Assembly (NCBI RefSeq): GCF_008831285.2
Contig: NC_045145.1
Span: 15,206,040 to 15,270,039 of the forward strand
DNA: 64,000 nucleotides
Direction of reading: 5' to 3'
Source of the DNA: Nymphaea colorata
Taxonomy: Eukaryota; Streptophyta; Magnoliopsida; Nymphaeales; Nymphaeaceae
In this document: in pieces, positions 26,571-58,171 of the stretch
How positions within the stretch are numbered: position 1 is the stretch's first letter
How the letters are laid out: every line of letters starts with the position of its first letter
The notes under the pieces: model-generated
Told to the model about the DNA's origin: nothing
What the model saw: the letters and a program-made list of their open reading frames with translations, nothing else
The model's database searches: none
Program-made: the position numbers and the translations under genes

Positions 26571-29500
26571 ATGGAGAAGACGCAAGAAGTTGCTGTGGAA
26601 CAGATGAGGGCAGCAATAGAAAAGTTGGGTTCTTCAGCAGAGGTATTGTTTTCTTCTTTTAATTTGGTTCCTTTGATAGTTGGCGCATACATATCATCTC
26701 CTATGTTCACAAGCTTTCAGGATCTCTAAGTCGACAAAGCTCGACATGATGGGCTTCAGGATATATATGGCTTAGGGAAATGCTGTCTAGGAAGTTAGGG
26801 GCCTGTCTCATGCTTTCCGAATTCCTACCATCTACTGCGAATTGGTAAAACAGAGCTAGAAGATTCAATTCGATTTTCAAGGCAGTACTTCATGAAGAAC
26901 TTATATGAGTTACGAAGAGTCGAGAGATGTCGTTTCAGCATAGAATTAAACCGGAAACTGTTTCTTCCAAGCACATGTTGTTAAGGTTGAAAACTAGTTG
27001 TTCACTCTCATGAAATCGAGATTGATACAGTTTTGAGTTTTGAAAATAACGTAAAGGACAGCAGTAAAGCTCGCCGCAGAACTATAACTTCCTGCTGCAC
27101 GGAAAACTGGTGGAAAACCAGGAAATAGAAAACATGGGGTTCATTTTTTGTAAGGACTATTCTCAAAAGATGCCAGGAAATTTTAAAGGAAAAAAACGAT
27201 GCCCCTCTCTCTGTTCTCGCATTCTTCTAAATTTTTTCGAAATGATGAATTGGTCTTCTTGTTGTTTGCTTTCTTTACAGGGGGAGGCCGATGGCAAGCT
27301 CATGATGTTTCTGGTAGCTAGATCCATGGACACGGAGAAAGCAGCTGAGATGTACTTGCAGTGGAAGAGATGGAGGGCTGAGATTGCTCCTCGAGGATTC
27401 GTCCCGGACGACGAGGTCGTTGACGAGTTGAATGCCCGGAAAAGCTTTCTACAAGGTGTTAACAAGGCTGGTCATGCAACGGTGGTCATTCTGGGGAGAA
27501 ATCATTTCGCGTCCAAGGATTTTCTGCAATTTAAGAGTAATAATTCATTGTCAACTATAGGGTCCAATAGCAGTAGTTCATGAAGAAGTATCTACATTTT
27601 CAAGAATTGCCAGCATGAATATGCCATTCAGGCGCGATTTTTTTGTGAAAGGAAATGCTACAGATTAGATTAAAACACAGTAAGGTGCGCAACTGAAAAT
27701 AATTATTAGACAAAAGTAATTGAAATAGTATAGCTCCTTTCGTCAAATTTGTGGGGTGGAAAAAGATCTTTATATGTCATTTACATTAATAATTAGCATG
27801 TAGGTAACATTTAGAGAATACTGGGTAATACCAAGTTTCTAAGACTTCAATTCATGAAAATTATGCTCAATCATTATAAAACTGATCATTTTGTATTATC
27901 TGCAAAGAAAAACTTTAGAAAAAAAAATTAGGTAACATATTTGAAATTAAAATATTTGAGAAACTTCACCACCAAGATGGTTAATTGTAAACACGAGAGA
28001 GGGTTCTTGCTGATTTATGTCAAATCTGCTCCATTTATCACCACAGGTTTCTGCATTTATATACTCAATCACAAAATATTAAGACACAATCACACTTGAA
28101 AACATTCACGGACATACATATAATGTCGTCTTCTTCACATGCACCCTGCAGGGAGCTACATTCTTATATTTAAATTTCTTGAAGTTGCATGTACATCCAT
28201 TTGCAAAGAAGGTTGTAGGAAGAGTGCAGGTGTTTGCAGTAGACTACTGCATTTTAGGGATTACAGCACCTTTTGCAATGGCTCATTGCATAGTGAAAAA
28301 ACTCCTGCTCTGCGGTGACGGACGGAGGAAGATATTTTGTCTCAAATCGCTGTATTCTTGTGCATCTGTGTCTTTGACTTCCGTTATTCTTTTCAATCTT
28401 AAAGGTCGTGGCAGGGGATTGTTTCTCTAAGTACAAAGTTTTCTTCAACTTAGTTATCATATCAAAATAAAGAGATAGGTAAGGCACCTGTCTCACCCAG
28501 TAAAAAATGACCAGCTAACGCTTGCCTATGTACAGAAGATGTTTTAACATCGATCCCTATTCAGTCTTTAATTCCTTCTTTTGGGTTGCAGAATTTGTAG
28601 CTTACATGATGGACAAAGGACTTGCAAGGTACAAACTGCTCTTATAAGATGAGACTTGTGAATTGTATGGGGTACTTGTAAACAGGAACATAGAAACAGT
28701 ATTCTATGAATCTGTTGTAGATATTGGAGCATGCATGCATGTTCATGGAACACTAAAATACAGTATTTCATGAATCCGCTTCAATTCATAGAACAGTTTG
28801 TTAGTATTTCTATTATCAAACACCTCCCGTGGCCGTAGCGTATATGATCGGTTCTGGTTGAGCATTCCGGCCAAACACGTCATGTTTTCCCCAAACATGT
28901 GTTCGGCCGGAATACATGACAACAAGAATCCTGGAGAAAGAAAGTTCCAATTTGTAATAGTTGGTCTTCCTGACTTTAAGTTTCCTAATTTTAGCCCTCC
29001 ACTGTTTCCTGTCTCTTCCTACGTAGTTGTGATGGAATTGTTGAGGAAGGGAAAGAGAGGGTGGCATGTGTTCTTGACCTGCAGCAACTCTCAATGGCCA
29101 ACCTTGACGTTAGAGGTGGAATTGAGGGATTTCAGATTCTGCAGGTATGCTTTCTCTTATTAGATAGTTAGCCTTGCTATTATAAATTAAGCACTACTTT
29201 TCCGTCAAAAAGAATCAAAAGATCGATCTGCTTTCAATCGTTTCTAAAACGACCACCCATCAAAAAGATGTATTCGTTAGCAGTCAACAACCAAAGTAAC
29301 TGTAGATTCGGACTACGCTTCAGGAAATTCATTGATATCACCAAGCACGGGTCACAGGCAGTCAATTATATGTCCATTATATATATCCACGAAACCCACT
29401 AAATTAGGAAAGTGCATGCATTAATCATGCCTCTGCTCTTATTTATAACTTGCACAGAAGAATCGGGATTGAATCGATTAGACAGTAGAATCAACAAATT

Positions 29501-30860
29501 GATTTTGAAACGCGACCTGCCCCCGGGCCAGCCCTACCACAAATGTGCTCTTGATGGTGGTCTCGGGCTAGTGTCATCAGAACTAATGCCCTGAATCGGC
29601 AAATTTGAATCGAATCAATGGCTCCCCAATTCGAATATTATATGGCCCGATTCAAGAGTGGCACACTTCAACCATTAATTATTTTTATAATTGTTTAGGA
29701 ATTTTTTATTGTTACTGAATTTTGTATAAAATTTTTCATTTATTTTTTAGAAAAAAACTTTTAATTATTTTGTTACCAATTCACAATGAATTTAGCTAAA
29801 TCGATGTGTCCACCAATTCTTCTAATTAATTGCGTCACAAACTGATTTTAAAAAATTGTTCTTGACCGTGTCACAAACACAGAAAGAGATAAAGTTTTCT
29901 TTAGAAAATTTTCATAAATTTTAAAAAAGTTAAAAACAAAAAACGAAATGTGAAAATAAAAATTTGATAACTAAAAAAATACAAAATACAAAAAACATAA
30001 AACTGAACAAACGAAAAAAAAAAACATGAATAAAATGCATTTTTCGTGTTTTTTTTCCATTTCACTGTTTTTTAAAAAATACGTTTTTTTTTTTTCACTT
30101 TTTTGGTTGACATGTTTTTAATGTTTTTCGAATAAAATACGTTTCTTATGAAGCTGGTCGTAACCCATGATGATAGAAATACGTGACCACGGTGGCCTGA
30201 GTTGTTTAAAATTTAATATACTTATTTATTAATATTCATGAATGTGTGTGTGTGCATGCATGAACATTTATGCAGGAGTACTATCCAGGACGACTAACAA
30301 AGTTTTTTATTATCAACGTCCCCTTCATTTTCGCCGCTGCTTGGAAGATCATCTCGCGCTTCCTCGACAAGGCAACAGCAGAGAAGGTATCTTTCTCTCT
30401 CTCTCTAACGAAGAAGAGCGACTCCGAAACAGCAGTGGTGTGAGCCACTGCCCACCCCAACCGCTGAAATCATGCATTGTCGACTGAGCTCGACCTCTGT
30501 TCAGCTAGTTCCATGGTGCTCACACCAGACCTAAGTCAGTGCTCCTCAACCAAATTTTTTTTTGGCTCTGCAAGCACCATCTTCCTAAACGAGAGATCTG
30601 TTGCCAAGCATGAACTCTCAGATGGATAGTACCTTGAAATATAGCTATCATTTGCAACCTATCGATTCGTTTGATATTTTTTCACATAATTAGTGACTGT
30701 TGTGGCGCAAAAACAGGTTCAGATCGTGAAAACGGAACGGCAAAGAAAGGAAATGCTGAAAGAGATGGGAGAGGAACTGTTGCCGGCTGAGTACGGCGGC
30801 AGTGCCAAGCTGGTGCCCCTGCAAAACGTGAAGCTCAAAAATCGGCCTCCAACTAACTGA
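26571..30860 (+). CDS. Sec14/CRAL-TRIO lipid-transfer protein, copy B (altered PI-binding residue)
   Basis: Exons are 26571-26642, 27281-27536, 28592-28628, 29027-29144, 30276-30386 and 30717-30860, giving 245 aa. The start MEKTQEVAVEQMRAAIEKLGS aligns with copies A and C; frame upstream of it is open but not homologous. The CRAL-TRIO-N region (FLVARSMDTEKAAEMYLQW) and the lipid domain are complete, and exons 2-5 match copies A and C in length. In exon 5 the Sec14 signature YYPER reads YYPGR: Gly166 replaces the Glu equivalent to yeast Sec14 Glu207, a phosphatidylinositol headgroup contact, while the partner Lys198 is kept. The encoded protein is otherwise intact, so this may be a copy with changed ligand preference rather than a dead gene. 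Intron 4 (29,145-30,275) is long and A/T-rich around 29,690-30,150. Confidence 0.9.
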
Positions 30861-33094: not shown

Positions 33095-36000
33095 ATGGAA
33101 GAAGCACAACTGAAGGCTGTAAGGGAGATGAGAGCGGCAGTAGAGAGGCTAAATTCTTCAACCCAGGTAATTCTCCTTCGTTATATATCCTCCTTGGGGG
33201 CACACTTGCATTACAGTATCTTTACGGCTCACATGTTTCTACCTGGTTAAGGTGGAGGGGTGGATGCCTAAGGCTTCCTCTGTTCTCTTTTTCTTGAAGG
33301 GGCGTTTGAATAGGAATACTCTCAATCTCTATTCTAAATTAATTAGATTGAGTTAGATTTTTCATGAATTTGCCCCAATCAGATTTATTAAATTTAATGC
33401 CCTGTTGTTATTTAGTGTTCGGAAATGCCCACTAAGGTTTAGAGTTATGTCGACTTGCCCAAGAAATTGGTTTTTGAAAGAACTAACCCAATGACTGATT
33501 GCCTACCAGCCGCTTGTCCGACCGGCTACGCTAAACCCTCGGGTTTTACAGAACTAGGATATATTAAAAAACGGACACAAACAGAGAGAATAGGGCTGTT
33601 GAAATTATGGAGATCATAGACCAAGGACTTATCCTCTTTTTTGGTGGAGGCCTGGTAGCCTTGAGGTTGAGGGTTTCAACCTTTTTGTTGGGCATTGGAT
33701 GAAATACTTCTCATACTCATCCTATCACATCACATGCACACAACACAAATTAATAATGGACGTCCATGGTCCCCATACATTTTGATGTTTGATTCAAATC
33801 CAAATTCAAGTAATTGAATTTGTTTTAAAATTTCATTGTCGATCGGTGATTAGTTGGATTCAGATTCGGTGTGTCTCACTGAATCCAATGCACGGTTATT
33901 TGAATTTTGGCAGATTTTCAGATCTGATTACATGCACAAGATCAATCGGATACAGTTTCATACATAGTTTTTGTATTCAAATTTATATCTTTGGATTAAA
34001 CGGTGTGTAATTATTTGGGCATAGTAATAGCTAGATATCCGATCCATTGGCTTCCTTATGCATGAAGTGTTAATAATACAGATATATACCTTTTTCACAA
34101 GTACGTCAACAAACTTTTTAAGCATTCTCTTGGCTTCATTTATTGATAATTATTTTTTAATTTCCCTTTTAGGGTGAGGAAGAAGCCAACCTTGTGAGGT
34201 TTCTGGTAGCTAGATCCATGGATCCAGAGAAAGCAGCTAAGATGTTTGTACAATGGAGGAAATGGAGGGCTGAGATTGCTCCACTTGGGCACATCCTGGA
34301 TGACGAGGTCGCTGATCAACTAAATGCTCGAAAAATTAATCTACAAGGCGTCACAAAGAGCGGTCACTCTATGATAGTCTTTCTAGCCAGACTGCATTTT
34401 CCCTCGAAAGACCGCCTGCAATATAAGAGTAAATTACTCATCACTAAACCTTTTTCCCGAATAGATCTCAAAAACTTTTGATATGTTGTCACAAGCATCA
34501 GTATTTTCTTTCACATAATGAGAAAACTACTAAGAACGGGACCATTTTTATTGGGTTTTGCTTTCTTCTCAATCCATTGAATGTGTTTGGTTTTCATAGT
34601 GGTAGTGAATATTTTACTTGTCAACGTCGCAACGCAACTCTATGTATGGTCTATTGTTAGTCCTTATTAGCCCGGTCGGCCAAATGTGCTTTTAAAAAAA
34701 GGGGGAGTTGAAAAAGATGAGAAACAATGAGGGAAAAGGAGGGTTGAGAAAAGTGTACCCTAGATCGAATCCTATTGACGCACGAATCCTTACCTATAAC
34801 CTTTAGGCATGATGGTCAGGCTATGGCGTAGCCACATGGTGATCGGTGCGGCCAGTTGTTCACACGAGTTTCTTAAAAGTTTTTTTTATTTTTAAACATG
34901 AATCTTAAATATTTTTCTTTATACAAGTGCCCCTCCAGTTAATTTTTCTAACTCCGCCATTATGGTCAAGACGGGTGTTTCTGGTTTTCACATATAATGA
35001 ACATTATATTTGCTCAACAAAACGTAAATCGTCCATCTTGCTTTTCTGATTTTCCATTTTATTCTTTTGAAGCGCAGAATTCGTCGCTCACGTCCTGGAC
35101 AAAGCAGTTGCAAGGTACACTTGAACTGAAGAAGTAGATATCTTTCTAAAGTGTTGAGTAATCAATCATTCGACGTCCATTTGATTATAGAGATTCAATT
35201 TAAGATACACTAATCCAATTTTAATTACTGAATAAGCTGTAGACGGAGGAGGCATAAGAAAAGTGGGGCGAGGAGATTCTCCTTCTTCTAAATAAAAAAG
35301 AGAACTTATGTTTTCTTCTGCTTTTTTAACTTCCCGTTTAATTTCTACTTATTCTCATTTTCCAAATTGGTATTTGAGTCCCTTCGTGAAAAAAAAAAAA
35401 AAATTCTCTTTCTTTTTTAATTAAATGGATTCTTGTACAGTGCCAGTGAGCATGCAGAGAAAGGGAAAGAAAGGATAGTGTGCGTCGTTGATCTTCAGCA
35501 ATTCTCGATAGCCAACATAGACGTTCTTTCGATCAGGGCAGCCTTCCAGATTTTGCAGGTCCTTAACTGATCTCCTTGCATTATTATCTTCTCAGTTTCT
35601 TTGTATTGTGTTATTTTATGATCTTCTCTGCGCCTTGCACTCATGCTTACAGTACTTGCAGGACTATTATCCAGAGCGACTAGCAAAGTTGTACATTATG
35701 AACATGCCCCGGATTTTGATTGGTATCTGGAGGATGCTCTCCAAGTTCCTGGACAAAGCAACCCTAGAGAAGGTCTCTCCATCTCCATCTCTTTCTCTTT
35801 CACACACACACACATACACCCCACAACTTGTTGCTAAAACTACCATAAATGTCTCCACACCATAAACAGTGGCTAATGCCAATTCAGTGATAGTTTTTTA
35901 GCAACATTTTTTATAAAATTTTAGCCATCCAACAATATGGGGCATGATTAAACTCTCCCCACATAATAAGTCACAGATTTCCATCTATGGTGACCAAGAT

Positions 36001-39283: not shown

Positions 39284-40265
39284 ATGGGAGGGCGGTCCGT
39301 TCAAGTTTCTGGTTTCCCTGCTGGTACTAACGCTGAGAAAGTTAAGGACTTCCTTGAATCACTTACAGGACATGGAACAGTTTACGCATGTAAAGTCAGA
39401 AATCCAAAGGATGTGCAGAAAAAATCGAGAGTTTTCGCAGTGGTTCAATTCACAACACCCAAATCTGCTGAACTTATTAGCTGTCTTGCGCAACCTCGTT
39501 CTCTATATTATGAGAAATCCTGGCTTAATGTTCGATATTTGGATAGAGATGTTATTCCGCAGCCAAGGACTCCATTGTTCGTTCTGGAGCAAGTGGTTTT
39601 GCACTTTGGATGCCTCGTTTCTAAGGAAACATATTATAGTCTGCATCTGATACCAAATGTCAATGTGCAATTTGGATTTGGTATGCGGAGAATATACTTC
39701 TTTCTGACATGTGGACGTGTGGAATATAAGCTTGATCTCTATTATGAGAATGTTTGGCAAATTCAGCTGCGGCATCAGAAAGGCATGGAGAAGAAGTACT
39801 TGCTGTTTCAGGTTTTGACACTCAATGACTTTTTAACTAATCTGTAGTCTATGCCTTTCCACTTGTTCGCGTCTCTTTCTTTGCAGCAAGTGTTTGGCTT
39901 CCTGTGCTCTTGTTTGTAGTATCTACATTCTTAGAACTGTTCTAAGTTGAACAAACTTGGGTTATGATCTTTAACTTTGTGATGCCTGCTTATAATATTT
40001 ATCTAGCGGCCTTTATCCAAGCTATCCTTTTTCTTTATCGCATTGCCTTCCGTTTTGTGACTGGAAGGTTTGAAACATGAATCTTAGTTAGAAATAGTAT
40101 ATGAAATTTATTGCAAATAACTGCATTCATATTTGAAGTTACCATTGCTATAAAGGCGTTTATAGCAGCACTCTTTTAACTAGCCATATGCAATGAAATT
40201 GGTTGTTATCTGTCTTTAGGAATGTGTCCCCAAACTTGTAATCGTTTGCAGTTGAGGATAACTGC

Positions 40266-40319
<54 letters not shown>

Positions 40320-43300
40320 ATTGCACCTGTAGCTCAATTTCTGTGTACTTGGGCGTCTTGCTGTCAATTAGCGTACGAAGTTTTGCATTTAATACTGTAG
40401 AAACACGAACAAGAAGAGGAAGAGAAACAACGATCACGATGTAACGTGGAAAAACCCTCAACAAGAGGAAAAAAACCACGAATGAGGAGGAGCCGGTGCC
40501 CACTAGCCGCCAGACTCTCTCTCTCCTTTGTCTTTCATTTACTCAATAAGGATTAGGGTTACACAACTTAAATAATGCCCAACAAGGGCTACAAGTTGGA
40601 TCGGATACGGATCCGGACCCGGTCCCGAGACCCATCTAACATACTTCAACACTCCCCCTCAAGTTGGGCATACATATCAAACATGCCCAACTTGGATACA
40701 TTTCTCTCAAATGAGGTCGAAGATAAAGCCTTCGTCAGAACATCAGCCGTTTGGTCTTCAGATCTCATGTAAGGAAGTATAAGTTCTTTAGCATCAATTC
40801 TCTCTCGAATGAAATGTCGGTCAATCTCAACATGCTTTGTTCTGTCATGAAGCACAGGGTTGTTGGCCAAGTTAATTGCAGACTTGTTATCGCAATACAT
40901 CTTCATTGGTTCTTCAACTTTTATACCAATATCAGTCAACAATACTTTCAGCCACAAAAGCTCAGAAACTCCCATAGCAACAGCTCTGTATTCTGCTTCA
41001 GCACTGGAACGCGAACAAACATCTTGCCTTTTACTTCTCCACACTATGAGATTCCCTCCCAAATAAATACAATAGCCAGAGGTGGACCTCCTAGTGTCAA
41101 TACAGCCTGTCTGCATCTGAATAACCTTCAATTCCAAGAGTGTCTTGCTTGACATATAAGAGACCTTTGCCAGGATTCCTCTTCAAGTAGCACAAGATCC
41201 TGTCAACAGCCTTCAAGTGGGCATCCGTGGGAGCATGCATGAACTGGCTCATCACATTCACAGCAAAGGTAATATCAGGTCTAGTGAGAGTAAGGTAAAT
41301 TAACTTCCCTACAAGACATTGATATCTTCTTTTTGCCTCTTCACAGAGTAGCTCCCCGTCTCTCAGACTTAGCTTATGGCCAGCATCTAGAGGAGTAGAA
41401 GCTGGTCTACACCCTAGTTTCCCAGTCTCCTTTAACAAGTCTAGAGTGTACTTCCGTTGATTTAGCACAAGGCTAGTCCCAGACCTAGCAATTTCTATGC
41501 CAAGGAAGTATTTCAACTTACCAAGGTCCTTAAGATCAAACTCGATCGCCAACAGTTTCTTTAACTTCATTATTTCATCTTCATCATCACCTGTGACAAT
41601 CATATCATCAACATATACCAACAGAATAGTAACCTTTTGCTTATTTCTCTTCACAAAAAGTGTATGATCTCCATTCCCTTGATGGTATCCACATTGTCTC
41701 ATGACAAGTCTGAGTCGTTCAAACCATGCTCGAGGAGATTGCTTGAGCCCATATAAAGCCTTCCTTAGCTTGCAACATTTTCCAGGTTCCTCATATCCTA
41801 GAGACATACACATATATACTTCCTCTTCAAGGTCTCCATTGAGAAAAGCGTTCTTGACATCAAGTTGGTACATCTTCCACTCCTTCATCACAGCTAAAGA
41901 GATAATGACTCTGACCGTCTTCATCTTCGCAACAGGAGCAAAGGTCTCCAAATAATCAATCCCATATTTCTGACTAAACCCCTTGGCCACAAGGCGAGCT
42001 TTGTATCTTTCAACACTCCCATCTGGTTTGTACTTGATGGTGTAGACCCACTTAGATCCAACCAAGTGAGCCGCCTCAGGAATCTTTACAACTTCCCATG
42101 TCATGTTTCTTCGCAAGGCTTCCATCTCTTCTTGCATAGCATAGGTCCACTTAGGATCACCCTGAGCCTCAGCAACATTCCTGGGAATCATAGTCAAAGA
42201 AAGAGAAGATACAAAGCATTTGTAGTCCTTGCTCAGTCTAGAATATGAAACAAAGTTACCAATAGGATGTTGAGTACATGACCTGACACCCTTTCGCAGG
42301 GCGATGGGAAGCTCTTCACTAGCAGCAACAGTCTGAATCTCTTCTTCAACAGGTTGCTTCTGCGCACGACTTGGGTCATCCAGGGAAGGACTAATTGGAT
42401 TGGGAGTAGAATTCTCACCACCTGTCATCTCATCTGTACAAACTCTTCGCCTAGAGTAAACTTGCCCAAATAAACGATTGCACTTCTCTTCTGCCTCAGT
42501 GGAACACTCTCCATTTTTCTCCTGTTCATGCACCTCACTAGATGGACCATTTTTCTCTTGTTCATGCACCTCACTAGATGGACCAACGGAGTCACGCCTG
42601 TAGTCCAAAAAATCTGTAAACTGAATTTCCTGACTCGGAGAATACTCTTCCCGTGACATAGAGTACTCCCCCTGAAGAGGATTCTCATCAAAATAGGAAA
42701 CATGTTCAAGGAAAGTGACATCTTTGGTAACATAGGCCCGACCAGTGGAAGGGTCTCGACACTTGTACCCTTTTTGAGTGGGAGAATACCCTAAAAAAAT
42801 GCCCTTAATAGATCTTGGATCAAGCTTTTTAATGTGAGGACTATGGTTGTGAATAAAGCAAACACAACCAAAAACTCTGAGTGGAAGAGAGAAAGGTTCA
42901 CGAGTCCCCGGTAACAGAGAGTGAGGCGTCTTCCCATTCAACACGCGACTAGGCAACCGGTTTATAAGATACGCACTGGTCAACACAGCATCCCCCAATA
43001 CTTTTTTGGAACATGACGTTGAAAAAGAAGAGCCCGAGTCATATTCAATAACTGACGATTTTTTCGTTCAGCAACTCCATTTTGAGGAGGGGTATAACTA
43101 CATGAAGTCTCATGAACAATTCCCTTTTTTCGAAAGAAGCTATCAACAGACTGGCACATATACTCTCGAGCATTGTCAGATCGAAATGTCTTAACAGATG
43201 CTCCATATTGAGTTTCCACATAGGCAATGAAAGTCTCTATGACAGTAGGAACTTCACTACGGTCTTTTAGCAAGTAGACAATAGTGTTACGAGAATAATC

Positions 43301-46300
43301 ATCGATAAAGGTGATAAAATATTGAAAACCATGACAAGAAGGAATCCCTGCAGGCCCCCACACATCAGAATGAATCATGGCAAATACCTCATTAGACCGA
43401 TGGCTAGACAATGGGTACGAAGCCCTAACATGTTTGGCCAGGTGACAGACATCACAAGACACCATAGTCATATCTAACCTGGAACATATATCAGGAAACA
43501 ACTGTCTAAGAAGGCCAAAAGGCAAGTGTCCAAGGCGCTCATGCCACCGTAGAAGCAACTGAAGGGAGTCCTCTCTATTCTTCGTGGCTTGGCTGACTGC
43601 CGTCATGAGAGCCTGAGCAGCACACATAGGTAAACGATAGAGCCCGTCAGAAGCTAGGCCAATCCCAATCCTCTTCCCTGTCACCAAGTCCTGCATAACA
43701 CAGCGATCAGCGGAAAATATAAGTTCGCAATTTAACTCCTTCGTGATCTTGCTAACCGACAAGAGATTCAAGGGAATATGAGGAACATGTAGAGCATTGT
43801 GGACTAAGAACTTGTTTAAAAGTGGGAGACTCCCTTTTCCAGCCACAGAGATAGATGAACCATCGGCAAGGGAAACACGATCCTTTCCTGATGAAAGCTT
43901 ATACCCATGAAAGACCTTAGGATCGCCGGTCATGTGGTGAGTAGCGCCACTATCAATGATCCACTCTCCCATACGGCAATCCGCCATAACGTCTATAGAT
44001 GAAGAAGCTGCCATAATCAGAGATAGTCCAACAGGAGGCAACAAGAGAGGCACCGATGACAACAGAGAGCACCAACGGGCAGTAATATCCGGATTCCCAA
44101 TCAGCCCCAAGAGTGAACAGAACGTCGATTGGGGGAAACGATCGTCGGAGCGCCGGCAGACGTTGAGGCAATCCTCAAGTTACGCTCCTCTCCTCCTATA
44201 TGTCCTCTACCAAGTCACGGACCAGCCACCTCTTCTTGCACGGTGGGCGCCAAACAAAAACAAGAAGATGGAATCAAAGATCAACCAAGCAATATATTGC
44301 AGGTAAGAGGCGGATGCACTTCACCGGATTTGCAAAAGACCCCTAGGAAGTGACATGAATAGGGGGAGGCAAGCTTAGGAAGCGCCTAAGCACGCATATC
44401 TTCTTTCTTCTTCGGGAAGCAAGACTACGGCACAAAAGGTAGTGGCGCAAGGGACAACGGTGACGGCGACGGTCAACAACACAAGAGCGACGGCGCAAGA
44501 GCGACGCCGCAAGAGTGGCTGCGATGGCGATGGCGCAAAGAGTGACACCGGCGGCGGCGGAAACAGCGACAGTGGTATTGGGTACACCGGCGGCGGTGGC
44601 TGCTGCAGCAACGGTGGCGGCAGCGGCGGTGGCGGCGGCGGCGGCAGTGGCAGCAGCGGCGGCGGCGGCGGCGGCGGTGGTGGCAGCGGCAGAGGCGGCG
44701 GTGACTGCAGTGGTGGCGATGGTAGCGGTGAGAGATATTAGGGTTGGAACTTCACAAACCCTAAAAATTTCCCAAACTCGTCGGCTCTGATACCATGTAG
44801 AAACACGAACAAGAAGAGGAAGAGAAACAACGATCACGATGTAACGTGGAAAAACCCTCAACAAGAGGAAAAAAACCACGAATGAGGAGGAGCCGGTGCC
44901 CACTAGCCGCCAGACTCTCTCTCTCCTTTGTCTTTCATTTACTCAATAAGGATTAGGGTTACACAACTTAAATAATGCCCAACAAGGGCTACAAGTTGGA
45001 TCGGATACGGATCCGGACCCGGTCCCGAGACCCATCTAACATACTTCAACAAATACATAATTTTTTATGTACTCGTACATTAACATTCCCTTTATAGGGA
45101 GCTTCAGCGTAATGCATTTTCGCACGCTTATGATGATTGAAAATCCTCAGTTATGTTGACTGTGGCAGAGTCAGAAATTTTGGTTTTAGGGGCAATATTC
45201 CAAAAGTTTTTGGGGCTGGTTTGGGAAACTGCTCTTACCAATCCACATTTGGCTTCACTACTGATTATGTATATGTAGTAGCTGTACCTAATGTATAGAA
45301 CTGGCTTGGTTTCTAAATCTTAATTAATTTAGCAAAACTTCTGTAAACACAGATCAAATTTGAGGCTTATTAACATTGCGAGATTTTCAAAAATCCCATA
45401 ATTTTTATGAGAAAATCAAATAAAAAGAAAAAGTTGCGAGATTTTGAAAATCTCACCAAAACGAAAATCTTGCGATTTTATCTCGATGAAATTTTGTAGG
45501 TTTTTTACGATTTTTTAATTTTCTAAACATTGTTGTGATTTTATCGAGATTTTCTTGAGAAGAACAACTTTGCCCAAAAACATCTAACAAAACCTTAGCT
45601 GATATTTTTCTGTGACTAATGATAGGCATACTGTAGAATAACAATGCCCATTTGTGATCTGCAGCTGCAAGGTGCACCACGGATATTTCAGAAGCCTCCA
45701 TGCAGCTTATCGGTAGTTTATGGAGATACGTTTTTTGACTATTTCAAAGATCTCCCGGATGATCAGTGGGTTAGGACAACTGATTTTACGCCACTGTGTT
45801 CCATAGGGCAGTCATCAACACTCTGCCTGGAACTTCTGAGTGGGTCCTCTTTACCAAATATCGGTGAAAATTTTGCTCACTACAAGTGTGTGGAAGATAA
45901 ATTCACAATAAAGCACGGTTTCTCATACTCACATGATCTGCAATTGGTTCCTATTGTCAAACCTCCACCTTCGATAACGTTACCATTCAAGATACTGTTT
46001 AAGATAAATTCCTTGGTTCACCTTGGATATCTTGTGGGTCCAACTTTGACGGAGGAATTTTATAATTTGCTGAGTCCTTCTGTCACGCCTCTTCATCACA
46101 CAGAACTGGCCCTGGAAAAACTCTCTCGGTTAACAGATTGCTGCTTTGAACCTGAAAAGTGGTTAAAAGGACAGTTGAAAAGATTTGATGCAGCTCGCCA
46201 TGTCTCAAAATCTGCAGCCATTTCTCCAGAATCTGGTTTAGTTCATATTCACAGGGTTCAAGTTACCCCTTCAAGGGTATACTTCTGCGGACCAGAGGTT

Positions 46301-49300
46301 AATGTCTCTAATCGTGTGACACGCCAATACCCCAATGAGATGGATAATTTTCTGCGTGTATCATTTATTGATGAAGACTCGGAGAAGATAAGATCAACCG
46401 ACTTGTCTCAACGAGCAACAGTCGTAGACGGTCAGAGTTCAACTTTGTCTCATAAAGCAGTGACTCCAGATGATCAAAATCTGACACCTATATACAAAAG
46501 AGTGTTGTCTACTTTGACAGATGGCATAGGGATTGGCGATAAGAGGTTTGAATTCCTTGCTTACTCATCCAGCCAGCTTAGAGAGAATTCTTTGTGGATG
46601 TTTGCATCACACCCTGAACTTAGTGCAGATGACATTAGACGGTGGATGGGTGATTTTAGTTCCATTAGAAATGTTGCAAAATATGCCGCCAGATTGGGGC
46701 AGTCATTCAGCTCATCAACTGAAACACTGAATGTTGATGCACATGAAACTGAAAATATTCCTGATGTAGTAAATGATAAGTATAACTTTTCTGATGGAAT
46801 AGGAAAGATCTCTCCTTCATTTGCTAAAGAAGTGGCAAAAAAATGTGGCTGTAAAGTAACACCTTCTGCTTTCCAGATAAGATATGGGGGTTGCAAGGGT
46901 GTTGTTGCTATTGATCCTACATCAAATTGTGATCTGTCATTGAGAAAAAGCATGTGCAAGTACAAATCGGACAACACCCAGGTGGATGTTTTAGCTTGGA
47001 GCAAGTACCAGCCATGTTTCCTGAATCGCCAGATAATAAATCTCTTGTCAACATTGGGGGTTAAAGATAACGTTTTTGAAATGAAACAAAATGAAGTTGT
47101 TGTTCAGCTAGATAAAATTTTGACAGATGCAGAAATTGCGTTGAAAGCTCTCGAACTCATGCCTTCAAGTGAAAACACATATGTCCTTTCAGAGATGCTG
47201 CACTGTGGTTACCTGCAGGATTCAGAACCATTTCTTTCGATGATGCTGCAAACATTGCAGGCAACTAAATTGTTTGACCTTAGGAAGAAAACAAAGATAT
47301 TCATTCCTGAGGGAAGAACTATGATGGGTTGCATGGATGAAACTAGAACGCTGGAATATGGCCAGATTTTTGTACAATATTCTGGAGTTGGGAAAGCAGA
47401 GAGGCGTCACTCTTCCATTGTTAAGGGATCAGTTGTAGTTGCCAAAAACCCTTGCCTGCACCCTGGTGACGTTCGTGTTTTGCAGGCTGTCGATGTTCCA
47501 GCTCTGCATCATATGGTTGACTGTGTTGTCTTCCCACAGAAGGGAAAAAGGTACGATGGTCTATATGCAGTACTGTGATATATTTCTTATACAAACTGAG
47601 CCATATAGTTCTCAAGCTGTCTAATGTATGAAGTTACAATTTTAAGTTTAAGAGGCATGCACAAATGCAAAGCTGGTTCAAAGATTTTCATTAGATAAGC
47701 GTTCTTTCCTTAGGAACATGGTAATGGAAGGTCCGTATGCTTCTCAAAGAAGATTCTCCAATGCATTCATTTCTAATATGACAAAAGTAACTGGGTCAGG
47801 TGGATTGTTGGGGTGTCTGATCCGAGGATTGTAAATGTCATGGATGCCTCTTGTTGTTGTACATGAAGTGTCATTTACTGCTTTGTTAGGGATCATCGCT
47901 TCAAAGTATTTTGTTTGGGGATGGATAGCAAGTCAACTGACTTTGACAACTAATAGATTCTCAAGGCCAATCCATGTAATTTTATTTGTTGATCATGGTA
48001 GATTCAACATTTAGGTCTAGTAGGAAACAAAGGCAATAGTTGAGGGGAGCAAAGAGATACGTTTCATTCAAAATATGGTGGGCATAAGATGTCAAACATG
48101 CATGTATAAGAAAACATGAAATTCATACTGATTTATACACAAGAAAACTTATTTTCTGCATAATCCCTGCTTCCTTGTATCATTCACCATAAATAACATC
48201 GTGAAAGATGTATATGTTGGAGGCAACCATGGTGCTACTTCATTTTGTTATTTTCCGTTTAACATGCATCCGGTGTCCACCGGTCTCTTCTTTTTATCTG
48301 AATAGAATTTACCATTTCTTTGAAAAAAGAACATTATGATCTTTAATCGAGAAGGCTTTTTTTTTTGTGGACGTCAGTGGTCGAACCATTCTGTTACTAA
48401 CTTTGACATTATGATTTCAAGGCCGCATCCAAATGAATGTTCTGGGAGTGATTTGGATGGGGATTTGTATTTTGTGAGTTGGGATCCTGCCCTTATTCCA
48501 CCACGGCAAATTGATCCCATGGATTATGATCCTGCACCACCAAAACTTCTTGATCATGATGTCTCAATTCAGGTATTTGTCTTGTAAACCAGCTGTGCTA
48601 ATTGGTCACCGTTGTTCAATTGATATGGGCACGGTGAAACTGAAATTTCTTCTGATAGCGCACAAGTTACCAGCATTGAGAATTGTTATGTTTTTGTCAC
48701 CTATTGAAGCCTTAATTGGTCTAGGTAAACATTAATTAGTAAAGAAATGTAGTAGTTTGCTTTAATAATTTTCAAGAATGCTGCAAGTAGGTAGCAACTG
48801 GGATCATGTTGGCCAACTTACCTCACGCTTGAGATAAACAAGTTACCTGTTCCAGTGTCTCAGAATTTGGTTTATTCAATGCTTGGTCGTCTTCCTGGAA
48901 TAACATTTTTTTTTTCTCTGAAAAGGTTTTGCCATGTTTCTTTCCTTGTCTTGTTTTCTGAATTAGCTAGCCATTAATCTGGTCCCCTACGAAACACACT
49001 CACTGGCAGGATATCCAAGAGTACTTTGCGAACTATATGATCAATGATAGCATGGGCATGATTTCAAATGCCCACACTGTATTTGCTGATAAGGAACCTG
49101 AGAAGGCGGAGAGTAAGCCATGCATAGAACTTGCCAAGCTGTTCTCAGCTGCAGTCGACTTCCCCAAGACTGGCATTCCTGCTTTGTTGCCGCCCCATCT
49201 CCGAGTCCGAGAATACCCCGATTTCATGGAAAAACCTGATAAGCCCACATATGAGTCCAAAGGCATAATTGGGAAACTTTTCAGGGAGATAAAGGATAAG

Positions 49301-49867
49301 CCACAGGAAGTTCCTGTTTCATCATTCACGAAGAGGGTTGCCTGGCAAGCATATGATCATGACTTGGAGGTTGATGGATATGAGGCCTACCTGGATGATG
49401 CTTACTATTTCAAAAGCAAATACGATCACAAGATAGCCAGCCTCATGCACCATTATAGAATTAAAACAGAAGCTGAGTTACTCTGGGGCAGGGTGGTCTC
49501 CCTGTCTGGATCTTCCAAGAGGAGCAGAGATGCTGAAGGTGTGCCCTTGGCTGTGAAGACTCTTAGGAAGGAAGCAAGAGACTGGTTTTCTAAAAAGTCT
49601 GGCAAGCCTGGGAAGCATGGTGATGGTCATGAGGACCAGTCTTCTGCAAAAGCTTCTGCTTGGTATCACGTCACGTATCACCCGGATTACTGGGGAGCCT
49701 ACAGTGAGGAGAATCAACCACATTTCATCAGCTTCCCCTGGTGTGTCTACGACAGGCTTATAGCCATAAAGAAAGATAAGATCAAAGCTGCTAATGCCAG
49801 GGGCAGGTCTGAGAAGGGCAAGGATGCCCAATTGAGGCACATCCTGAACTCACTGAGGTTCAAGTGA
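39284..49867 (+). CDS. RNA-dependent RNA polymerase 1, copy 1 (RDR1-1), with a copia insertion in intron 1
   Basis: Converts single-stranded RNA to dsRNA that Dicer-like enzymes cut into siRNAs; RDR1 is the salicylate- and virus-inducible plant member. Exons are 39284-39811, 45665-47550, 48422-48572 and 49010-49867, in phase, giving 1,140 aa (family about 1,100-1,130). The N-terminal RRM-like region is about residues 1-60 (GGRSVQVSGFPAG). The RdRP core includes FSDGIGKIS and the catalytic DLDGD at residues 815-819, which lies on the small third exon as in RDR1-2. The C-terminus carries HVTYHPDYWGAYSEEN and FISFPWCVYD. Two diverged 14-aa units occur near residues 440-467 ahead of NLTPIYK-VLSTL. 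No frameshift or stop is seen. Intron 1 is 5,853 bp because of a 4.66-kb retrotransposon in reverse orientation, versus 843 bp in RDR1-2. Splicing may still work, but expression could be altered. Confidence 0.93.
40269..40315. repeat. (TA)n microsatellite in RDR1-1 intron 1
   Basis: About 23 TA units, 80 bp left of the copia insertion site. Confidence 0.95.
40396..40651 (-). repeat. 3' LTR of the copia element
   Basis: A 256-bp direct repeat with TG/CA ends. Read base by base it equals the LTR at 44,796-45,051. Because the element lies on the minus strand, this left copy is its 3' LTR. The RNase H frame runs a few bases into it. Confidence 0.97.
40646..41110 (-). pseudogene. Copia RNase H segment of pol (third frame)
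   Basis: RNase H-like sequence with CIDTRRSTSGYC, SSAEAEYRA and the C-terminal DQTADVLTKAL, which are typical of copia pol. It is out of frame with the upstream reverse transcriptase: a small deletion at about 41,106-41,108 removes bases just after the YSDAD motif. Confidence 0.85.
40652..40662 (-). other. Polypurine tract of the copia element
   Basis: On the minus strand the sequence TTGAGGGGGAG abuts the 3' LTR and primes plus-strand DNA synthesis in this element class. It also encodes the last residues of the RNase H frame. Confidence 0.85.
41097..42998 (-). pseudogene. Copia integrase C-terminus and reverse transcriptase segment of pol
   Basis: An open stretch of 633 codons. It begins with the end of the integrase (AYLINRLPSRVL, GCVCFIHN, FLGYS), passes a low-complexity linker and continues into the reverse transcriptase. 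The RT shows WVYTIKYKPDGSVERYKARL, LDVKNAFLNGDL, LYGLKQSPRAW and the catalytic YVDD at 41,604-41,615. The linker includes a 12-aa tandem duplication (42,511-42,582). It is shifted against the protease-integrase frame at a run of five C on the plus strand, 42,992-42,996. The RT residues look intact, but the polyprotein is broken. Confidence 0.9.
42511..42582 (-). repeat. 36-bp tandem duplication in the copia pol linker
   Basis: Two adjacent 36-bp units (42,511-42,546 and 42,547-42,582) differ at one base and encode a repeated GPSSEVHEQEKN peptide between integrase and reverse transcriptase. Confidence 0.95.
42980..44110 (-). pseudogene. Copia protease and integrase segment of pol
   Basis: An open stretch of 376 codons. 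It carries the aspartic protease motif WIIDSGATHHMTG (Asp-Ser-Gly at 43,946-43,954), the integrase zinc-binding His/Cys pairs (RWHERLGH and CDVCHLAK) and the core acidic residues in IHSDVWGP, FRSDNAREY and NGVAERKNRQLL. No ATG opens it, as expected of the middle of a gag-pol polyprotein. It terminates early after KKYWG because of the frameshift at 42,992-42,996. Confidence 0.9.
44111..44782 (-). pseudogene. Copia leader with gag almost entirely missing
   Basis: Only about 670 bp separate the protease frame from the primer binding site, and they hold no gag capsid frame. A short minus-strand stretch near 44,205-44,250 can be read as CKKRWLVRD, which could be a decayed remnant of the gag CCHC zinc knuckle. 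That reading is weak inference. The rest is leader plus a GCC-triplet block. Confidence 0.6.
44515..44740. repeat. Imperfect GGC/GCC trinucleotide block
   Basis: Dense GGC, GGT and GCA triplets on the plus strand give Gly-rich, Ala-rich and Ser-Gly readings in the three frames and Ala-rich or Thr-rich readings on the minus strand. It sits in the leader of the retrotransposon, where gag should begin. It is probably non-coding simple sequence. Confidence 0.85.
44783..44795 (-). other. Primer binding site (initiator Met-tRNA type)
   Basis: On the minus strand TGGTATCAGAGCC directly follows the 5' LTR. It is complementary to the 3' end of the initiator methionine tRNA, the standard primer of plant copia elements. 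Confidence 0.93.
44796..45051 (-). repeat. 5' LTR of the copia element
   Basis: Reads as identical to the LTR at 40,396-40,651. It is the 5' LTR for the minus-strand element and would drive transcription antisense to RDR1-1. Confidence 0.97.
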
Positions 49868-52565: not shown

Positions 52566-55500
52566 ATGGGAGGACGGAGCATTCAGGTTTCTGGTTTTCC
52601 TGCCGGTGTTGATGCTGATACTGTTAAGAACTTTCTGGAATCGTATACAGGATCGGGGACCGTTTATGCATGCAAAGTCAGGGAACCAAAGCAAGGCCGG
52701 AGCAAAAGAGTTTTTGCGATGGTTCAGTTCACCACTAAGAGAGATGCTGAACTTATTACTTCTCTAGCACAGCCTCGTGCTTTGTACTATGGGTCATCCT
52801 ATCTTACTGCTCGGAATTTGGAGAGAGATGTTGTTCCACAACCAAGAACCCCATTTTTTTCTCTGGAAAAAGTAGTGTTACACTTCGGATGCCTTATTTC
52901 AAAACAAACATATTACATTCTATATACGAAGTCAATTGTGAAGGTGGAGTTCGGCTTCGGTTTGCGGAGAATATACTTCTTTCTTGCTTGTGGAGACGTT
53001 GAATACAAGCTTGACCTCTATTATGAGAATGTGTGGCAAGTTCAGCTGCGACACCAGAGAGGGGTGAACAAAAGATATTTGCTTTTTCAGGTTTGATCCT
53101 TGATGACTGCTGTTACCGATCTGCGCTTTTTATGATTCTTCACTTTATTTTGTTGCTGTTCCTGTTCCTGTTCCTTTGCAGCAAAATTTCGGTTCCTCCG
53201 GCTTTACTTGCAATACTTACTTCTCCTTGCTCTTTTAGTTCCCATTCATGTGTAAGTTTGGCCTTGTCCTGCCTACTTACCCATCCTCAGATAGATGTGT
53301 TCCTTCTTTGATGTCTCAGCTTGTCAGCATGCATAACTGCCAGTTGTACGTCATACAGACGCGACTTGCATCTAATGTGCATTTTATCTGCAAAACCAAT
53401 TTAGAGCAGTGAAAAAATGAATAATGTGGTAGCCGTTATATACCAGATTGATCATGTTTATATATGATCTATCCAATCAGTTCTTGCCTAGTTGCCTTGA
53501 TAACTCTACTTTGTTCTGAGACATTTAGCACGCGTATACAGATTGATTCGATAATTGGAATTCCATAGTCATGATTTTATGCTTTATGTCATGTCATTGA
53601 TGGTAACATATATATTCCTAATCTGCTCTAAATGGGTTTCATACTTTACATCATAATAATAAAGTTATCCCTGCATAATTGGAAAGCTTGTGAAAGTTAT
53701 AGACTACATGAAACCTTTGGATGAGATGAAAGTCTGTAAGATAGCTTAAAGCAACACACACATTGCTCCAATTAGATCTCTCATAACTATGTTGTTACTT
53801 GTCAGGCATACTGCGACTACGAGATATGCTCAATAAACCAGTGCGAGAACGCTGGCGATTAACATTTTGAACCCTTTTTTATGATATTATCCATTAGAAA
53901 AAATCACAATCTAATCTGCATGCCTTATCGCAGCTGCAAGGTGCACCACGCATATTTGTTAAGCCTGTATGCATTACGTCAGCAATCTCTCGGATGCCAA
54001 TTCTTGACTTTTTTAAGGATCTTCCAGATGATCAGTGGATTCGAACAACAGATTTTACGCCTTTGTGTTCTATAGGGCAATCGTCAGCAGTCTGCCTGGA
54101 AATCCCAGATGGGTCTTCTTTACCAGATATCCGTGAGTACTTTGCACACTATAAAGACGTAGAGGGTGAATTCACACTACAACAAGGCTTTTCTTATTCT
54201 TGTGGTTTAAGTTTGGTTCCCGTTGTCAAACCACCAAACAGAATCAGGTTACCGTTCAAGATACTGTTCAAGATAAATTATTTGGTTCACTTTGGATATC
54301 TTGTCGGTCCGACACTTACAGATGAGTTCTATCATTTGCTGAATCCATCAGTCACACCTCTTAACTACATTGAACTGGCCCTGGAGAAACTCTCTCAATT
54401 AACAGATTGCTCCTTTGAACCTGAGAAGTGGTTGAAAGCACAGTTCAGGAAATTTAGTAGAGCTCGATATCTTCCAAAGTCTGCAGTGATTTCACTCGAA
54501 CCTGGTTTGGTTTACGTTCACAGAGTTCAAGTGACCCCTTCAAAAGTATATTTCTATGGACCAGAGATCAATGTCTCTAATCATGTGATTCGCCAATACC
54601 CTGATGAAATAGAAAATTTTCTACGTTTATCATTTATTGATGAAGATTTGGAAAAGATTCGTTCTTTTGACCTATCTCGGAGAACAACACTACCGGATGA
54701 CCAAAAATCTACTTTTCTATTGGAAACGATGTTGTCTAGTTTGGAAATAACCTTAGGTATTGGTGATAACAAGAATGAATTTCCTGCTTTCTCATCAAGC
54801 CACGTTTCTCAGAGAACCACATTTCTAGATGACCAAAATCATACTCCCATATACAGAAGGGTGCTGTCTACTTTGGAAGAAGGCATAGTTATTGGTGATA
54901 AGAAATTTGAATTTCTTGCTTTCTCATCAAGCCAGCTAAGAGATAATTCTTTGTGGATGTTTGCATCACATCCTGAACTTACTGCAGCTGACATCAGACG
55001 AAAGATGGGTGATTTTAGTTCCATTAGAAATATCGCTAAATATGCAGCGAGGGTGGGGCAGTCATTGAGCTCGTCGACTGAAACTTTGAAAGTGCCTCCA
55101 TCTGAAGTTGAAAATATTCCAGATGTAAAAAGTGGTCAATATGTTTTTTCTGATGGGATAGGAAAGATTTCTTCAGCATTTGCGCGCAAGGTGGCAGAAA
55201 AATGTAGTTGCAATCGAAGGATACCTTCTGCCTTCCAAATTAGATACGGGGGCTACAAAGGTGTTGTTGCTGTCGACCCCACATCAAATTTTAAGTTGTC
55301 CTTGAGAAAGAGCATGTGCAAGTACATGTCAAATGACACTCATCTGAATGTTTTAGCTTGGACTAAGTACCAGCCCTGTTTCTTGAATCGTCAAATAATA
55401 AACCTCTTGTCAACTCTGGGGGTTGAAGATCGCATCTTTGAAATTAAGCAAAAGGAAGCACTAGATCAGCTGGATAAAATTTTAATAGATGCAAAGGTTG

Positions 55501-58171
55501 CACTGGAGGCCATTGAGCTCATGGCTCCAAGTGAAAATATGAAGGTTCTTACGGAAATGCTACATTGTGGATACATGCCAAATTCTGAGCCATTTCTTTC
55601 GATGATGCTGGAAACATTTCGAGCAACCAAGTTACTAGAGCTTAGGAGAAAAGCAAGAGTATTTGTCCCTGAAGGAAGATCCATGATGGGTTGCATGGAC
55701 GAAACTAGATCCTTAGACTATGGTCAGGTTTTTGTTCAGTATTCTGGTGCTGGAGATGCAGAGTGTCAATGCACTCGTGTTGTTGAGGGATTAGTTGTTG
55801 TTGCTAAAAATCCTTGCCTACACCCTGGTGATGTGCGTGTCTTGTGGGCTACCAATATTCCAGCCTTGCACCATATGGTTGACTGTATTGTCTTTCCTCA
55901 GAAAGGGAGAAGGTACAATAATCTATATGCACCCCTCCCACGCTACCGTCTCTTTATCATTGCTGTTATTATGCAAAGTAGACATGTTGCTCCTTATTTG
56001 TCTATTAGGAAGGTCACTTAATACATTGTTTGGAATGACTTATAAATTCTACAAAATGACAAATGGACGCCTAACGGAGTCTAAAACTGTTGTGCATGAT
56101 TGAGGACCATGGCAATGAAAACATTGAAAACCCCGCTTGCTCTCAGGAGGGTGGGAGTTCATCCTGCAAAGTGGAATAGTCCAATCATTTATACGTTACA
56201 GACCACACAATGAATAGCTGTCTTACATACTATCGTTTTGCTCTTTTTTTGTTTTGTGTGACCGACAACTTCGTTGCAATAATTCCCTCGTGATTTCTTG
56301 TACCGTCAAATCAATGAAGTAACAATTTTAGTAAAAGCCAATCCGCAATGTCGCGAAAAGTGGTTAATCATCTACTTTAAATTGTCTTAAGATTGGTACC
56401 AAAGCTTAGTTCAAAATATATGACATCCTGAGATGTCGCGCATGCATAAATAAGAAAAGTGGAAGTTATAAAAACACAAAAGTAGCATATTAGCTAATAA
56501 TATACATCAATTGTTGGTTTGAAATTTTGAATATACGGCTGCATAAGATGTGGCACAGTCATGAATAAGAAAAAGTGATGAAAACACAAAAAAGGTGTAT
56601 TTTGACTAATATGCATTAAGCCTTGGTAGGCATCCTTCTTATTTGTTCATCATAATTAGCATATTATCTTTGTTCTTTCCATGTACTAATAACAACGTTG
56701 TTGTTGCAAGAGAAGGCCACACCCCAATGAATGTTCAGGGAGTGATTTGGATGGAGATGTTTACTTCGTTAGTTGGGATCCTGCACTTATTCCACCTAGG
56801 CAAATCCCCCCTATGGACTATGATCCTGCGCCGCCAGAAGATCTGGGTCGTGATGTCTTAATCAAGGTACTCTGTTATAATAAATTACACAAAAAGGTCC
56901 TTTGCTTTTATTGAGTTCATAGAAGAAGTATTTGTGATCCCTCTCTTATTAGGATGGTGTGAGTTGTGGGCATTGAAAAGAATTACATTCTATATCAACT
57001 TCTAAAGCAGTAGAAATTGGGAAAGCATACCTACAATTGAGATTAGCAAAAGAGATTAAATTCAAAAGTGATTGGATCTTGATCGCATAATGGAAAGTTG
57101 CGTCCTGGTCAATATGTGGCATCAAGATAAACTTTTCAAGGGAAAAGATGATTCTTGGGGAAAACTCGTGGCACATGTGATGTTATTCTTTTATTCTGAT
57201 AATAAGTATGTCAACAAAATTACTATCAAATAAAGTTTTTGTTGTCTTTGCTTTGGAACTAGGTAACCATTTTAATCTGTTGCCTACTCTAATTTGCGTG
57301 CCACTAAGCATTCTTCTTGGCCTGGCCGTGATGACAGGACGTGCAAGAGTACTTTGCAAATTATATGATCAACGACAGCTTAGGTATAATTTCAAATGCC
57401 CACACAGTGTTTGCTGACAAGGAACCAATGAAGGCACAGAGTCTGCCATGCATAGAGCTTGCCAAGCTTTTCTCAGTTGCAGTTGATTTTCCCAAGACTG
57501 GTGTCCCAGCTGTTATCCCATCTCATCTCCGGGTCCAAGAATATCCGGACTTCATGGAAAAACCAGACAAGCCCACATATGAGTCCAGGGGAATAATTGG
57601 AAAACTTTTCAGGGCTGTCAAGGGTAGATCACAGGTTGCTTCAATTGCATCTTTTACAAAGAGTGTTGCCTGCAAAGCATATGATCGAGACTTGGAAGTA
57701 GATGGATATGAGGACTACTTGGATGATGCCTATTACTACAAAAGCGAATATGACCTCAAGTTGTGGAATCTCATGCAGCATTATGGGTTCAAAACAGAGG
57801 CTGAGATCATGTGTGGTAACGTGATGTTCCTCTCTGGATCTTTTAGAAGAAACAGAGATTCGGAAGCCATCCTACTGGCTGTGAGGTCTCTTAGGAAGGA
57901 AGCTAGAGCCTGGTTTGCAAAAGAGTCCAACAGGTCAGAGCAGTATGGTGATGACTATGAGGATGATCCTCTTGCAAAGGCGTCTGCTTGGTATCACGTC
58001 ACGTATCACCCAGATTACTGGGGAGCCTACAGTGAGGAGAACCAACCACATTTCATCAGCTTTCCTTGGTGTGTCTATGATAAGCTCATAACCATCAAGA
58101 AAGAGAAGCTCAGGTCTCGAAAAACCAGGGCTGCTCAGTTGAAGCACCACGTGAACTCACTAATGCTGTAA
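52566..58171 (+). CDS. RNA-dependent RNA polymerase 1, copy 2 (RDR1-2)
   Basis: Intact tandem sister of RDR1-1, with the same role in siRNA-based antiviral silencing. Exons are 52566-53090, 53934-55912, 56716-56866 and 57338-58171, giving 1,162 aa. All exon boundaries and phases match RDR1-1, and exon 3 is 151 nt in both. The N-terminal RRM-like segment begins GGRSIQVSGFPAG. The core carries FSDGIGKIS and catalytic DLDGD at residues 845-849. The C-terminus again ends with HVTYHPDYWGAYSEEN and FISFPWCVYD. Compared with RDR1-1 it carries a 44-aa tandem duplication before the LRDNSLWMF motif, which accounts for most of the extra length. The two paralogues differ at many positions, so the duplication is not very recent. 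Nothing suggests inactivation. Specialisation between copies is possible but not shown by sequence. Confidence 0.95.
54675..54938 (+). repeat. 132-bp in-frame tandem duplication in RDR1-2
   Basis: Two adjacent 132-bp units (54,675-54,806 and 54,807-54,938) encode 44 aa each. The first runs from SRRTTLPDDQ to FSSSHV and the second from SQRTTFLDDQ to FSSSQL. They share about half their residues, so the duplication is old and has stayed in frame. Confidence 0.9.

What the first reader, a model, noticed from the sequence alone, without database searches (positions are those of the whole stretch)
40391..45056. Very young copia insertion in intron 1 of an antiviral silencing gene
The two 256-bp LTRs read as identical and the AATAC target duplication is perfect, so the insertion is recent. 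It sits antisense inside RDR1-1, whose product makes dsRNA for silencing. LTR transcription would run antisense to RDR1, and siRNAs against the element could affect the host intron.
Basis: partly seen in the sequence, partly recalled or inferred. Interest (0 to 1): 0.7.

Follow-up and report, generated by a model that had tools for sequence, protein, structure and literature searches.

The report
Gag-less young copia element in RDR
A recently inserted plant jumping gene sits backwards in the first intron of a gene-silencing polymerase gene; it belongs to a family that has lost its capsid gene yet kept copying itself, probably by borrowing capsids from related elements.

Summary
A 4656-bp copia element (40396-45051, minus strand) has two identical 256-bp LTRs and a perfect AATAC duplication. 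It lies antisense in intron 1 (39812-45664) of an RDR-type polymerase gene whose exons stay open. It is young, but 0 differences in 256 bp only bounds it below about 0.45-1.5 Myr, depending on an assumed rate. Any effect on the gene is untested.

All 8 gag-bearing relatives compared join the family's homology at the same place (element 1078-1081). Just upstream, the family's sequence aligns to the gag start codon of 5 of these 8. So gag was deleted while its start codon stayed, in frame with protease. In 10 of 21 copies pol is open from that codon to the end.

Pol variants shared between copies show purifying selection (N:S 13:22, dN/dS about 0.2-0.3); singletons look near neutral. Young gag-pol relatives with open frames exist in the same genome. 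The best reading is a Tos17/BARE2-like parasite that makes its own Pol but borrows Gag: a new, multi-copy member of a known kind.

The parts
40391..40395 (.). Target site duplication AATAC, left copy
45052..45056 (.). Target site duplication AATAC, right copy
44796..45051 (-). 5' LTR of the element (256 bp), identical to the 3' LTR
40396..40651 (-). 3' LTR (256 bp)
44783..44795 (-). Primer binding site TGGTATCAGAGCC (initiator-Met tRNA type; the tRNA assignment is recalled)
   Evidence: exact match in 20 of 21 copies (not L026)
40652..40660 (-). Polypurine tract GAGGGGGAG next to the 3' LTR
   Evidence: 21 of 21 copies
44015..44782 (-). Leader without gag, with a CCG-rich tract (44588-44701) in a region that varies in length between copies; 8 of 21 copies carry a further 213-227 nt in the leader
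   Evidence: the part 43974-44330 matched only this family among the 40 places scored
43997..44082 (-). Remnant of the gag start region: sequence upstream of the gag ATG, the ATG itself (44014-44012) and the first codons
   Evidence: best local alignment falls on the gag start of 5 of 8 gag-bearing relatives, each above all its shuffles; 3 of 8 do not show it
43972..43996 (-). Deletion junction; DNA homology to the gag-bearing relatives resumes at element 1078-1081
   Evidence: 8 of 8 relatives
42980..44014 (-). pol, first part: protease (DSGATHHMT motif), Pol_BBD, gag_pre-integrs, integrase core
41097..42998 (-). pol, second part in another frame: SH3-like domain, reverse transcriptase RVT_2
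40646..41155 (-). pol, third part in another frame: RNase H region (SSAEAEY motif; name recalled, no Pfam match above cut-off)
39284..39811 (+). Host RDR gene exon 1
45665..47550 (+). Host RDR gene exon 2, most of the RdRP domain (3' border chosen by GT/AG and the recalled RDR motif GKRPHPNEC)
48422..48572 (+). Host RDR gene exon 3, carries DLDGD (3' border one of several that keep the frame)
49010..49867 (+). Host RDR gene exon 4 to the stop codon (5' border one of several that keep the frame)

Best explanation
The window holds a recent insertion of a gag-less copia family. An ancestor with one gag-pol reading frame lost about 1 kb of gag but kept the gag start codon in frame with protease, so the RNA should be translated straight into Pol (protease, integrase, RT, RNase H). 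The RNA keeps LTRs, PBS and PPT. It is inferred to be packaged in capsids made by related gag-bearing elements in the same genome and copied there by its own Pol. Shown: structure, no gag found, the deletion junction, independent insertions, recent amplification, constraint on pol, and young open gag-pol relatives. Inferred: use of foreign Gag, preference of Pol for its own RNA, and which relative is the helper. In the RDR gene the element is most likely a tolerated intron insertion (inference).
For: No Pfam gag domain in the window copy's scanned frames, while Pol domains are found (not every leader frame was scanned). In one search the gag proteins of three relatives gave 5 weak hits (E 2.3-4.9) in 22 sequences, two of them on the gag-start remnant; the same queries hit 5 of 5 relatives along gag. 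All 8 gag-bearing relatives share the breakpoint at element 1078-1081. The gag-start remnant is above shuffles in 5 of 8. 17 of 21 copies have identical LTR pairs (L016 over 255 columns) and 19 of 21 a perfect 5-bp target duplication, each different. Pol is open from the shared ATG in 10 of 21. Shared pol variants are N:S 13:22, dN/dS 0.20-0.27, p at most 1.7e-4; singletons 42:21, dN/dS 0.66-0.93, not significant; Fisher p 0.006. Two fetched gag-pol relatives have single open frames of 1476 and 1454 codons with LTR pairs 100% and 99.6% identical; 20 of the 123 gag matches lie in open frames of at least 1454 codons, one of these with a stop in the match.
Against: No RNA, VLP or extrachromosomal DNA data. 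The 20 copies fetched for alignment came from the best LTR matches to the window, so youth and identity are biased upward. The selection test uses 35 shared sites. The remnant is short, its margin over shuffles is thin in L052 (35 against 33), and it is absent by this test in 3 of 8 relatives. A gag-bearing element with this family's own leader could exist beyond the 40 scored places.
Confidence: 0.8

Rival explanations
1. The element is autonomous after all: the leader encodes an unrecognised, diverged gag-like protein, so no helper is needed.
For: A stop-free stretch of 159-251 codons runs through the GC-rich leader in one frame of all 21 copies.
Against: In 20 of 21 copies the stretch begins inside the LTR. 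In the copies whose translation was printed it is poly-alanine/proline-like low complexity; the window's has no match near a Pfam cut-off. Length changes of 2, 5 and 14 nt, not multiples of three, fall inside it in some copies. Gag was found readily in the relatives.
Confidence: 0.06
2. The insertion is old, and its LTRs were made identical by gene conversion.
For: Possible in principle; LTR identity alone cannot exclude it.
Against: The internal 3500 bp differ from the nearest fetched copy by only 6 substitutions and 2 small indels, and the copy carries 7 private variants in all. Seventeen of 21 independent copies show identical LTR pairs, though these were picked by LTR similarity.
Confidence: 0.05
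3. The insertion alters the RDR gene: antisense LTR transcription or siRNA-directed methylation spreading lowers or retunes silencing capacity.
For: Antisense orientation inside intron 1; the family is recent and multi-copy, so siRNAs are plausible.
Against: No expression, methylation or small-RNA data. The exons stay open, and a second RDR gene lies about 2.7 kb downstream. Intronic insertions are often tolerated (recalled).
Confidence: 0.12
4. The family is a set of dead relics copied by segmental duplication rather than by retrotransposition.
For: Two near-identical copies lie about 16 kb apart on C3 in opposite orientation, which fits local duplication or a local hop.
Against: 19 of 21 copies have their own 5-bp target duplications with differing sequences; the two C3 copies also have different ones.
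Confidence: 0.02

Closest known systems
Tos17 (rice copia element)
   Same: Copia with LTRs, PBS and PPT, a pol-only open frame, no gag; proposed to borrow Gag from a related element (PMC3977881, whole text read). The PBS core printed there, TGGTATCAGAGC, is the same.
   Different: Tos17 has two copies in the reference and no gag remnant identified. This family has at least 40 places with its leader, a recognisable gag start joined to pol, gag-bearing relatives about 71-79% identical in pol DNA in the same genome, and measurable constraint on pol.
BARE2 (barley copia element)
   Same: Cannot make Gag, makes up about 68% of BARE transcripts, and its RNA is packaged in virus-like particles (PMC3735527, passages).
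   Different: In BARE2 a deletion removes the gag start codon; this family lost the body of gag but kept the start codon.
Gag-bearing relatives in the same genome (L030, L047-L053)
   Same: PBS core TGGTATCAGAGC in 7 of 8 (not L050); LTRs mostly about 69-86% identical by local alignment; pol DNA about 71-79% identical from element 1078-1081 onwards.
   Different: They carry gag (Pfam PF14223 shown on L030; related sequence in 8 of 8); two have one open gag-pol frame of 1454 or 1476 codons, others are interrupted.
TARE1 (tomato copia element)
   Same: Short-LTR, about 4.7-kb copia that amplified recently (PMC3701649, passages).
   Different: Described there as autonomous, most copies having the full gene set; some incomplete copies lack gag.

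Membership tests
LTR retrotransposon, Copia superfamily | Paired LTRs with TG...CA ends and target site duplication | tested here: met
LTR retrotransposon, Copia superfamily | Domain order PR-IN-RT-RH with RVT_2 | tested here: met
   PR and RH by motif, IN and RT by Pfam
LTR retrotransposon, Copia superfamily | PBS and PPT in place | tested here: met
Autonomous copia element | gag capsid gene present | tested here: not met
   no gag match beyond a start remnant; control relatives hit
Gag-less, trans-mobilised copia (Tos17/BARE2 kind) | Pol kept, Gag not expressible, family-wide | tested here: met
   gag found in 0 of 21 aligned copies; pol open in 10 of 21; copies not fetched were not tested
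Gag-less, trans-mobilised copia (Tos17/BARE2 kind) | Recent independent insertions despite no gag | tested here: met
Gag-less, trans-mobilised copia (Tos17/BARE2 kind) | RNA packaged in particles made by a gag-bearing partner | not testable with these tools
   candidate partners exist; no RNA or particle data
Plant RDR polymerase gene (host) | RdRP domain with DLDGD and intact exons around the insertion | tested here: met
RDR1 in particular | Closer to RDR1 than RDR2 by phylogeny | not tested
   No named plant RDR1 proteins were at hand; two of the best four PDB sequences are named RDR2, the other two only RNA-dependent RNA polymerase

The most novel reading that the evidence does not exclude
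A copia lineage has become a specialised capsid parasite: deleting gag while keeping its start codon turned the whole translation product into Pol. Pol stays under purifying selection because it enters borrowed capsids with its own RNA. Such elements would add enzyme rather than merely steal it, and could spread beside their helpers without their own gag.
Probability: 0.4. Interest if true: 0.6.

Novelty: new member of a known kind. Interest (0 to 1): 0.4.

Why it matters
In the papers I saw, gag-less copia elements rest on few cases, notably Tos17 with two reference copies and BARE2. This genome offers a multi-copy family, a readable deletion junction, gag-bearing relatives close enough to compare, and enough copies to test selection. 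That makes it possible to ask which Gag is borrowed and whether Pol acts on its own RNA. The RDR intron insertion is a useful presence/absence marker, but no effect on silencing has been shown.

Tried and rejected
Empty site by paralogy: the neighbouring RDR gene's intron 1 gave only short chance-level matches. Empty site in the assembly: the right flank matches in full only at its own locus; the left flank was not searched. Leader capture from another element or gene: a search with 43974-44330 scored 40 places, all 96-100% identical over their main stretch (some further split pieces 88-89%), so no outside source was seen among them. Copy number from the LTR-end+PBS pattern: 384 places at up to 3 mismatches, reversed-pattern control 0. 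This is not family-specific: three one-mismatch places that I fetched proved gag-bearing (3 of 3). Fifty-three listed places match exactly. The selection test was first run from element 872, which took in 55 leader codons (shared 15:25, singletons 45:23; with other kappas); the corrected run from the ATG is, and odds did not need changing. Species identity was not established. Paper searches: 7. Beyond Tos17, RN304 (named in the Tos17 paper), BARE2 and incomplete TARE1 copies I saw no other gag-less copia family in these listings and passages; that is not a full literature review. Passages of PMC9097378, PMC4608283, PMC9190103 and PMC5338827 were read without adding to the argument.
Full report
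Observation. The element at 40396-45051 is real and as described: two 256-bp LTRs without a difference, TG/CA ends and a perfect AATAC duplication, with PBS and PPT in place. It reads on the minus strand. The host gene reads on the plus strand: exons 39284-39811, 45665-47550, 48422-48572 and 49010-49867, with GT/AG borders, give one open frame of 1140 codons with DLDGD. Other borders for exons 2-4 also keep the frame; I chose these by the recalled RDR motif GKRPHPNEC. The protein carries the RdRP domain.

Age. Zero of 256 LTR differences bounds the age at 447, 831 or 1454 kyr (95%) for rates of 1.3e-8, 7e-9 or 4e-9, which are recalled values. The copy has 7 private variants among 21 aligned copies, giving 117-380 kyr with upper bounds of 220-715. 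Private variants can include copying errors and changes in unsampled parents, so they lean high. Recent, then, but not necessarily 'very young' if the host is a slow-evolving tree.

What it is. Pfam finds Pol_BBD, gag_pre-integrs, integrase core, SH3-like and RVT_2 domains but no gag in the frames scanned. Pol of the window copy is split over three frames by two small deletions relative to its nearest fetched relative. I fetched 20 more copies from the best LTR matches. Seventeen of 21 have identical LTR pairs (L016 over 255 columns), 19 of 21 a perfect target duplication, and internal divergence is at most 0.9%. L015 and L016 lack a matching duplication. A leader query matched 40 scored places; 40 is the scoring cap, so this is a lower bound.

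Loss of gag. An older relative on C2 (L030), met by chance beside a copy, carries a 325-residue gag (PF14223, E 3.5e-11) and pol DNA 77-79% identical. Searching that gag in the genome scored 123 matches of 5386 candidates. I compared 8 gag-bearing relatives: L030, four picked (L047-L050) and three fetched as LTR-pattern near-matches before their gag was known (L051-L053). In 8 of 8, the main homology with the window element starts at 1078-1081, next to the protease motif; upstream only LTR, PBS and parts of the leader match. Gag sequences of L030, L047 and L048 gave 5 weak hits (E 2.3-4.9) in 22 sequences of this family, against long hits in 5 of 5 relatives. Two of the five weak hits, in L012 and L027, fall on the gag start described next. 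The 22nd sequence (L029) was cut roughly, so I count 21 well-defined copies.

The junction. Element 970-1055 aligns best to a stretch of L050 that contains its gag start codon and first codons (score 56, best of 30 shuffles 29). The same place is the best alignment in L048 (38 against 27), and, with 100 shuffles and a shorter query, in L051 (34 against 28), L052 (35 against 33) and L053 (42 against 36). L047 and L049 stay below their shuffles, and L030's best alignment (27 against 26) lies elsewhere. The shuffles keep base composition only. The ATG is in frame with protease, and pol is open from it to the end in 10 of 21 copies. The simplest history is deletion of about 1 kb of gag with the start codon kept.

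Selection. Among two-state pol variants from the ATG to the end of pol in the 21 copies, those found in at least two copies are 13 nonsynonymous to 22 synonymous (dN/dS 0.20-0.27 for kappa 2-16, p at most 1.7e-4). Singletons are 42 to 21 (0.66-0.93, not significant). The two classes differ (Fisher p 0.006). As these copies share the deletion, shared variants most likely arose after gag was lost. Pol therefore still mattered in copies that gave rise to others.

Mechanism. Copies without gag amplified recently, so Gag must have come from elsewhere. Twenty of the 123 gag matches lie in open frames of at least 1454 codons (one with a stop in the match); the two fetched have single gag-pol frames of 1476 and 1454 codons and LTR pairs 100% and 99.6% identical. 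The 1454-codon relative and L051-L053 have LTRs about 80-86% identical to this family's and the same PBS core. They are candidate helpers; none is shown to be one. BARE2 RNA in particles (PMC3735527, passages) and Tos17 (PMC3977881, whole text) are precedents.

Host gene. Nothing here shows an effect. The intron also holds an older dispersed repeat (about 45375-45620) and a TA microsatellite. A second RDR gene lies downstream (52566-58171).

Noticed in passing
window 52566-58171: A second, tandem RDR-type gene (RdRP domain in two open frames), 74-81% identical to the first in DNA where alignable; its intron 1 is about 0.85 kb and unrelated in sequence.
   Followed up: partly
window 45375-45620: Dispersed repeat inside the same intron, 67-82% identical to many other places, possibly a MITE.
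   Followed up: no
window 40269-40315: (TA)23.5 microsatellite about 75 bp from the insertion point.
   Followed up: no
window 22341-22611, 27270-27540, 34162-34432 (and 24370-24491, 30271-30392, 35657-35778): Two sets of three direct copies, the other copies 70-72% identical to the reference copy, suggesting a tandem gene triplication.
   Followed up: no
window 42511-42582: 36-nt tandem duplication inside pol of the element; 4 of the 20 other aligned copies (L017, L018, L021, L028) lack one unit.
   Followed up: partly
G000 C3:2552224-2577755: Two nearly identical copies of the family about 16 kb apart in opposite orientation with different target duplications.
   Followed up: no
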